From Bryoerythrophyllum caledonicum (taxonomy: Eukaryota > Streptophyta > Bryopsida > Pottiales > Pottiaceae), in the NCBI GenBank assembly GCA_963971425.1, contig OZ020522.1, positions 3,260,168 through 3,324,167 of the forward strand: 64,000 bases of DNA. The letters run 5' to 3'. The first letter of the stretch is position 1, and each line of letters opens with the position of its first letter. The notes under the pieces were generated by a model. It saw nothing but the letters and a program-made list of their open reading frames with translations, did no database searches and was not told the origin of the DNA. The position numbers were made by a program, and so were the translations under genes. Below are positions 54,765 to 63,368 of this stretch, piece by piece.

Positions 54765-63368
<8,604 letters not shown>

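What the first reader, a model, noticed from the sequence alone, without database searches (positions are those of the whole stretch)
56307..56333. 2A-like ribosome-skipping peptide inside a plant/algal LINE ORF2
GDIETNPGP preceded by a hydrophobic stretch is an exact 2A consensus. It lies at the junction between a polyQ leader and the AP endonuclease, where cutting would make functional sense. 2A peptides are known in picornaviruses, trypanosome L1Tc/Ingi and some animal LINEs. I know of no description in a streptophyte LINE with a polyQ leader.
Basis: partly seen in the sequence, partly recalled or inferred. Interest (0 to 1): 0.92.

Follow-up and report, generated by a model that had tools for sequence, protein, structure and literature searches.

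The report
Ribosome-skipping signal in moss retrotransposons
A jumping gene in a moss carries a short "stop-and-go" (2A) signal, known mostly from viruses of animals, that very probably makes the ribosome release one protein and carry on with the next; many copies in the same genome, and relatives in a green alga, keep it, which suggests a natural use of this trick in plants.

Summary
The motif is real: DIETNPGP at 56310-56333, in frame in an open 2900-codon ORF2. The host is a moss by its argininosuccinate synthase. ORF2 lies in a complete 14.8-kb non-LTR element with a perfect 14-bp target duplication and has both an APE and an R2-like endonuclease, the hallmark of Dualen/RandI. The 2A is not chance. 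In the host genome the codon pattern occurs 1,720 times, its reversal 2; 68 of 70 examined sites run into related ORF2. Of 75 copies chosen by the downstream region alone, 64 keep the strict core, including all 22 with frames of 2000 codons or more; a dN/dS-like ratio is 0.09 in the core, 0.26 just before it and 0.6-0.8 further upstream. Of 140 related proteins 25 carry the motif, 18 from the alga Haematococcus and 7 unnamed; the nearest relatives lack it. PolyQ is not a constant partner. Best reading: StopGo separates a fast-changing leader from the replicase. Skipping itself is untested. 2A is known in other LINEs; I found none described in Dualen-type or plant elements, but two key papers could not be read.

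The parts
48770..63602 (+). whole non-LTR retrotransposon, 14,833 bp
   Evidence: bounded by a perfect 14-bp direct repeat; the joined flanks read as one Tc1/mariner-like transposase stretch across the empty site
48756..48769 (.). target site duplication, 5' copy
   Evidence: identical to 63603-63616
63603..63616 (.). target site duplication, 3' copy
52825..54516 (+). probable ORF1 (start codon inferred; frame open from 49174)
   Evidence: open in one + frame, 48 and 39 stops in the two others over 52827-54513; no Pfam match up to 0.01
54666..63368 (+). ORF2, 2900 codons stop to stop; first Met codon at 54765
54765..55793 (+). basic, polar leader of ORF2
   Evidence: 54666-55793 has 0 stops in frame against 16 and 27 in the other + frames, 0 of 2000 shuffles stop-free; 55 K+R against 13 D+E
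55794..56162 (+). pure polyQ, 123 residues, (CAA)n
   Evidence: not constant in the family
56262..56333 (+). 2A/StopGo region MPINITHCKLLIILGG-DIETNPGP; predicted break between Gly (56328-56330) and Pro (56331-56333)
56334..56993 (+). 220-residue linker between 2A and endonuclease, no known fold; starts with a nearly invariant Met
   Evidence: no Pfam family besides endonuclease ones in 56334-57950; single-sequence model mean pLDDT 37, not usable; Met in 74 of 75 copies
56994..57659 (+). AP-type endonuclease
   Evidence: Pfam PF14529 9.4e-6 and PF03372 6.8e-5, both just under their curated cut-offs; family profile 3e-45, the window being one of its seeds; QET, GDFN, SDH motifs
58848..59639 (+). 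reverse transcriptase, YADD present
   Evidence: Pfam PF00078 2.3e-27
61113..61484 (+). PCIF1_WW-like domain
   Evidence: Pfam PF12237 1e-9
61899..62324 (+). RNase H
   Evidence: Pfam PF00075 7.4e-13
62553..63218 (+). CCHC zinc knuckle and R2-like restriction-like endonuclease
63369..63602 (+). 3' UTR with strong hairpins and a TTC-repeat end
   Evidence: 63480-63600 folds with z = -5.4, 0 of 200 shuffles as stable

Best explanation
It is a working 2A (StopGo) signal. A ribosome that has entered ORF2 translates the leader (522 residues from the first Met to Gly555). The nascent chain KLLIILGG-DIETNPG stalls in the exit tunnel with Gly555 on the P-site tRNA; the bond to Pro556 is not made, the leader is released, and translation goes on from Pro556 to make a separate 2345-residue replicase (linker, APE, RT, PCIF1-like domain, RNase H, R2-like endonuclease). 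Shown here: motif, frame, complete element with an open ORF2, selection on the core amino acids across copies, recurrence in relatives ahead of the endonuclease. Inferred: skipping, its efficiency, and its use, which I take to be to free the replicase from a fast-changing, repeat-rich leader while both are made from one frame. How ribosomes reach ORF2 after ORF1 is not explained.
For: Genome: 882+838 matches of the codon pattern D-NTN-E-x-N-P-G-P against 2+0 for the pattern read backwards; 68 of 70 examined sites directly followed by related ORF2, 43 different 24-mers, p13 Ile 69 and Val 1 although the pattern also allowed Leu, Met and Phe. Sample chosen by the downstream region only: 64 of 75 strict; ratio of nonsynonymous to synonymous change per site 0.09 in the core, 0.26 in the six residues before it, 0.78 and 0.58 further upstream, 0.06 in the ten residues after it; 22 of 22 copies with frames of 2000 codons or more are strict, all 11 exceptions have shorter frames, Fisher p 0.027. 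Relatives: 25 of 140 proteins plus the window carry the strict motif, expected 0.0025 in all 141; 27 perfect sites (12 after removing near-copies) against 2 with one mismatch and 7 with two, 25 of 27 L-rich before the core; 200 scrambled motifs gave 10 hits in all, from one motif. In the 12 non-redundant sites Gly at p11 is kept in 11, Leu at p6 in 11 and at p7 in 10, none of them asked for by the search. LIILGG-D fits the L-rich class with p12 = D of PMC12846837 (section 10 read).
Against: No translation data. The nearest RT relatives outside the genome (P0053, P0001, P0002) have 546 to 846 residues before the endonuclease and no 2A; on the RT tree the motif needs at least 11 changes, 8 forced by well-supported branches, and 18 of the 25 motif-bearing relatives are gene models of one alga. 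10 of 75 copies in the genome have a single missense change in the core and one has lost the region. The dN/dS-like count compares each copy with the window, not along a tree; the 75 are close kin (85-100%).
Confidence: 0.85

Rival explanations
1. Short-leader version: translation of ORF2 starts at Met533 (56262), 16 residues before the core, so that 2A is an N-terminal, signal-like peptide as in sea-urchin NLR proteins, and the long leader is not translated.
For: Met lies within 30 residues upstream of 23 of 27 motif sites, window included; the residues before the core are hydrophobic; the leader changes quickly and 12 of 75 copies have a stop within 62 codons upstream. Sea-urchin N-terminal 2A that doubles as a signal sequence is described in PMC4981915 (passages).
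Against: In the window the leader is coding-like: no stop in 376 codons against 16 and 27 in the other + frames. The context of this ATG is weak, C at -3 and C at +4. 46 of 149 other copies have frames of 2000 codons or more, and by my count of the list 36 of 149 have 2500 or more, longer than the 2,368 codons from that Met to the stop in the window; two of the 46 have one stop inside the matched stretch.
Confidence: 0.2
2. ORF2 proper starts at the ATG right after NPGP (56334) by internal or re-initiation, and the 2A core is only a relic.
For: That Met is kept in 74 of 75 and 70 of 70 copies.
Against: A relic would not show a ratio of 0.09 in the core with 22 of 22 long-frame copies strict. 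The codon has C at -3 and C at +4. In the 12 non-redundant sites only the window has Met there. Both may be true (Met = older start codon behind which a 2A was later put).
Confidence: 0.06
3. The motif is a chance octapeptide without function.
For: Skipping has not been measured; the nearest relatives outside the genome lack it.
Against: 1,720 against 2 pattern matches, selection, 25 of 140 relatives against 0.0025 expected.
Confidence: 0.02

Closest known systems
2A-bearing non-LTR retrotransposons of trypanosomes (L1Tc) and of animals (APE-type; Heras 2006 and Odon 2013, titles seen only in reference lists)
   Same: 2A-like core in frame in the element's protein; ahead of endonuclease and RT in the cases I recall
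   Different: those are named APE-type; this element also has an R2-like endonuclease, RNase H and a PCIF1-like domain, lies in a moss, and its 2A stands after a long leader
Dualen/RandI non-LTR retrotransposons (described as coding for both APE and PD-(D/E)XK endonucleases; PMC3636483 and PMC4640811, passages)
   Same: APE, RT, RNase H and R2-like endonuclease in one protein
   Different: the passages I read mention no 2A; the RandI families tabulated in PMC3747384 (passage) stand under green algae, this one is in a moss
Viral 2A/StopGo (FMDV 2A and relatives, PMC12846837)
   Same: core (D/G/C/N)(V/I)ExNPGP; L-rich upstream class with G at p11 and D at p12
   Different: cellular mobile element; that paper finds no evidence of natural use by plant viruses and calls use in cellular genes rare
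Sea-urchin NLR N-terminal 2A (PMC4981915, passages)
   Same: 2A-like motif in a cellular gene, hydrophobic stretch before it
   Different: there an N-terminal signal sequence; here after a leader of about 500 residues in a retrotransposon

Membership tests
2A/StopGo sequences | core (D/G/C/N)(V/I)ExNPGP | tested here: met
   DIETNPGP; definition from PMC12846837
2A/StopGo sequences | suitable upstream context (L-rich hexapeptide ending in G before D) | tested here: met
   LIILGG compared by eye with PMC12846837 section 10; in 70 sites Leu at p6 in 66 and Gly at p11 in 67
2A/StopGo sequences | core kept by selection | tested here: met
   crude count, not on a tree
2A/StopGo sequences | skipping in translation | not testable with these tools
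   needs a reporter
Dualen/RandI | APE endonuclease upstream of RT | tested here: met
   the single-sequence Pfam scores lie just under the curated cut-offs
Dualen/RandI | restriction-like endonuclease at the C-terminus | tested here: met
Dualen/RandI | RNase H domain | tested here: met
Dualen/RandI | RT groups with reference Dualen/RandI elements | not tested
   no reference element was at hand; relatives include named Haematococcus and Pleodorina proteins
Dualen/RandI | cysteine protease domain (feature recalled, from no call) | tested here: inconclusive
   Josephin-like in 20 and OTU-like in 5 of 25 2A-bearing relatives by home-made profiles, neither in the window; the model of the linker was not usable
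APE-only 2A-bearing LINE clades | no restriction-like endonuclease | tested here: not met

The most novel reading that the evidence does not exclude
StopGo is a recurrent or ancestral device of dual-endonuclease (Dualen/RandI-like) retrotransposons of the green lineage, placed ahead of the protease-endonuclease-RT replicase, and in this moss it has been amplified to well over a thousand sites under selection: a large natural reservoir of 2A translation inside a land plant, where natural use had not been seen in plant viruses.
Probability: 0.6. Interest if true: 0.82.

Novelty: new variant of a known kind. Interest (0 to 1): 0.75.

Why it matters
2A is treated as almost a viral speciality, rare in cellular genes and, per PMC12846837, without evidence of natural use by plant viruses. 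A moss genome with about 1,700 sites, and relatives in a green alga and in unnamed records that keep the core while its surroundings change, would show that plant ribosomes face natural StopGo signals, would give many new 2A sequences from plant elements, and offers a natural experiment: many copies with and without the core in one genome.

Tried and rejected
Chance motif: rejected. PolyQ as a general partner: rejected; 8 of 70 sites have a run of 8 or more Q within 250 codons upstream in frame; in the 75 close copies 44 have a run of 6 Q and 17 a run of 6 N within 62 codons. Cryptic cysteine protease between 2A and APE: not found; my home-made Josephin and OTU profiles miss the window and the single-sequence AlphaFold2 model had mean pLDDT 37. 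Relatives in viral contigs: none confirmed. Rfam over 48600-63700: nothing up to E 1. Relatives of the window's leader or linker among the 140 proteins: none below E 0.4. The PCIF1 NPPF-type motif (recalled) is absent in the window.

Literature: the listings of the ten searches showed no paper on 2A in Dualen/RandI or plant LINEs. Not held and not read: Odon 2013, Rao 2025 on eukaryotic and viral 2A sequences, Luke 2014; Rao 2025 searched cellular proteomes (as told in PMC12846837) and may list some of these. Seen: PMC12846837 abstract, sections 10 and 14 in full, passages; passages only of PMC4981915, PMC4640811, PMC3747384, PMC11512398, PMC3636483, PMC5009743, PMC8623073, PMC12655427.

Full report
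Observation. The window encodes DIETNPGP at 56310-56333, preceded by KLLIILGG, in a stop-free frame of 2900 codons, 54666-63368. It is the only match to (D/G/C/N)(V/I)ExNPGP in six frames; composition predicts 2.4e-5 in the ORF, and 0 of 20,000 shuffles have one. The frame before it is coding-like: 54666-55793 has no stop in frame, 16 and 27 in the other + frames, and 0 of 2000 shuffles are stop-free.

Host. Exons of argininosuccinate synthase at about 42.2-44.4 kb, spliced by me to 399 residues, are 92% identical to Ceratodon purpureus, the best hit with an organism name; records without one reach 98%; the next named hits are Diphasiastrum complanatum (87%) and Calypogeia fissa (86%) (the best 120 of 7,091 are listed). 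That these are a moss, a lycophyte and a liverwort I recall. I take the host as a moss; its assembly has 437,360,962 bases.

Relatives elsewhere. Two searches gave 140 related proteins, many without an organism name, the named ones mostly Haematococcus lacustris. 25 of 140, and the window, carry the strict motif, where 0.0025 sites are expected in 383,019 residues. In the 24 of 25 where an endonuclease was found the motif lies ahead of it; P0081 has no endonuclease match. Of the 141 proteins 110 match the endonuclease profile, 72 of these have at least 400 residues before it, and 25 of those 72, window included, have the motif. There are 27 perfect sites, many of them near-copies, 2 with one mismatch and 7 with two; one of the two is DIHPNPGP, and PMC12846837 reports p14 = H as active in its own context. 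Twelve sites are under 50% identical in their flanks; in them p15 takes six different residues, most flank columns have about 2.5 to 3.6 bits, Gly at p11 is kept in 11, Leu at p6 in 11 and at p7 in 10. The other core positions are fixed by the search itself, so only p11, the Leu positions, p15 and the flanks are evidence there. Downstream of the motif 20 of 25 relatives have a Josephin-like and 5 an OTU-like domain by my profiles; the window has neither; many relatives without the motif have a Josephin-like domain too. P0022 has two motifs in a row. On an RT tree of 113 rows the motif, present in 23 rows and absent in 35 with a long N-terminus, needs at least 11 changes, against 18.4 for shuffled labels (0 of 500 as low); the window's nearest rows, P0053, P0001 and P0002, lack the motif or, like P0054, are too short to tell. 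One origin with many losses and several gains are both open.

The host genome. The codon pattern for D-NTN-E-x-N-P-G-P occurs 882 and 838 times on the two strands, the pattern read backwards 2 and 0 times. I looked at 68 loci with 70 sites, taken from the first places listed, all on contig C1; ten of the later ones I picked, partly for unusual codons, so this is not a random draw. 68 of 70 run directly into sequence related to the window's ORF2 (40 to 91% identity), with 43 different 24-mers. The pattern left p13 open to Phe, Leu, Met, Ile or Val: 69 are Ile (ATA 40, ATT 26, ATC 3) and one Val. A run of 8 or more Gln within 250 codons upstream in frame was present in 8 of 70.

Sample chosen without the motif. 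One search searched with residues 557-795, which do not include the motif: 4,260 candidates, the best 150 scored, the window among them. I read the junction in every second of the other 149, 75 copies; these are close kin (85-100% identical). 64 of 75 have the strict core in frame, 10 have one missense change in it, at p13, p17, p18 or p19, and one has unrelated sequence. Counting each copy against the window, the ratio of nonsynonymous to synonymous change per site is 0.09 for the core, 0.26 for the six residues before it, 0.78 for the next six, 0.58 for the 50 before those, and 0.06 for the ten residues after it. It is a crude count: not on a tree, multiple hits split by rule. The core is thus about as constrained as the stretch after it, and far more than the leader. 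All 22 copies with an open frame of 2000 codons or more have the strict core; all 11 exceptions have shorter frames (Fisher p 0.027; rank test p 0.007).

Mechanism. I take it as StopGo. Structure work by others places D12, E14 and N16 and an L-rich stretch in contact with the exit tunnel (PMC12846837, passages), and the window's LIILGG-DIETNPGP fits the class with L-rich hexapeptide, G at p11 and D at p12. The leader is basic (55 K+R, 13 D+E), then polyQ here. Its quick change against a strict core suggests that freeing the replicase from the leader matters more than the leader's sequence; this is inference. A Met follows the motif in 74 of 75 copies; it may be an older start codon.

Novelty. 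2A in non-LTR retrotransposons of trypanosomes and other species is known (as told in PMC4981915). In the ten searches named under Tried and rejected I saw nothing on 2A in dual-endonuclease or plant elements, but Odon 2013 and Rao 2025 could not be read. I call it a new variant of a known kind.

Noticed in passing
window 61113-61484: PCIF1_WW-like domain between RT and RNase H; the NPPF-type motif (recalled) is replaced (GLAHPHN). 80 of 140 relatives match this stretch in a loose single-sequence search.
   Followed up: partly
window 48770-52900: Five of the window's 15 GTAAGT splice-donor-like words lie in the element's 5' region: 49717, 50156, 50866, 51263, 52724; the 5' leader may be spliced.
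   Followed up: no
window 51601-52027: Tandem repeats of 63 and 84 bases in the 5' region of the element.
   Followed up: no
window 63480-63600: Very stable hairpins at the 3' end, z -5.4, directly before a TTC-repeat end; possible RT recognition site.
   Followed up: partly
window 48041-48769 and 63603-64000: The LINE sits in a Tc1/mariner-like transposase gene whose pieces lie in different frames.
   Followed up: partly
window 56334: ATG directly after NPGP in 70 of 70 and 74 of 75 copies, while none of the 11 other non-redundant sites has Met there.
   Followed up: partly
P0022 residues 632 and 698; P0007 residues 305 and 362: Tandem 2A: two perfect motifs in P0022, one perfect and one near-miss in P0007.
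   Followed up: partly
L004: A second stretch of the same frame (residues 323-362) aligns to the window's 2A region, a possible duplicated 2A.
   Followed up: no
G000, contigs C2, C3, C4, C6, C7, C9, C11, C14, C15: Sixteen copies share the same score (4.7e-135, 88% to the window); 14 of 16 have frames of 2557-2723 codons: perhaps a recently amplified subfamily.
   Followed up: no
window 16580-17140: DUF7869 frame (3.6e-25), function not known.
   Followed up: no
window 13039-13093: Repeat with consensus ACCCTAAACCCTAATCCTAT, like the plant telomere repeat as I recall it.
   Followed up: no
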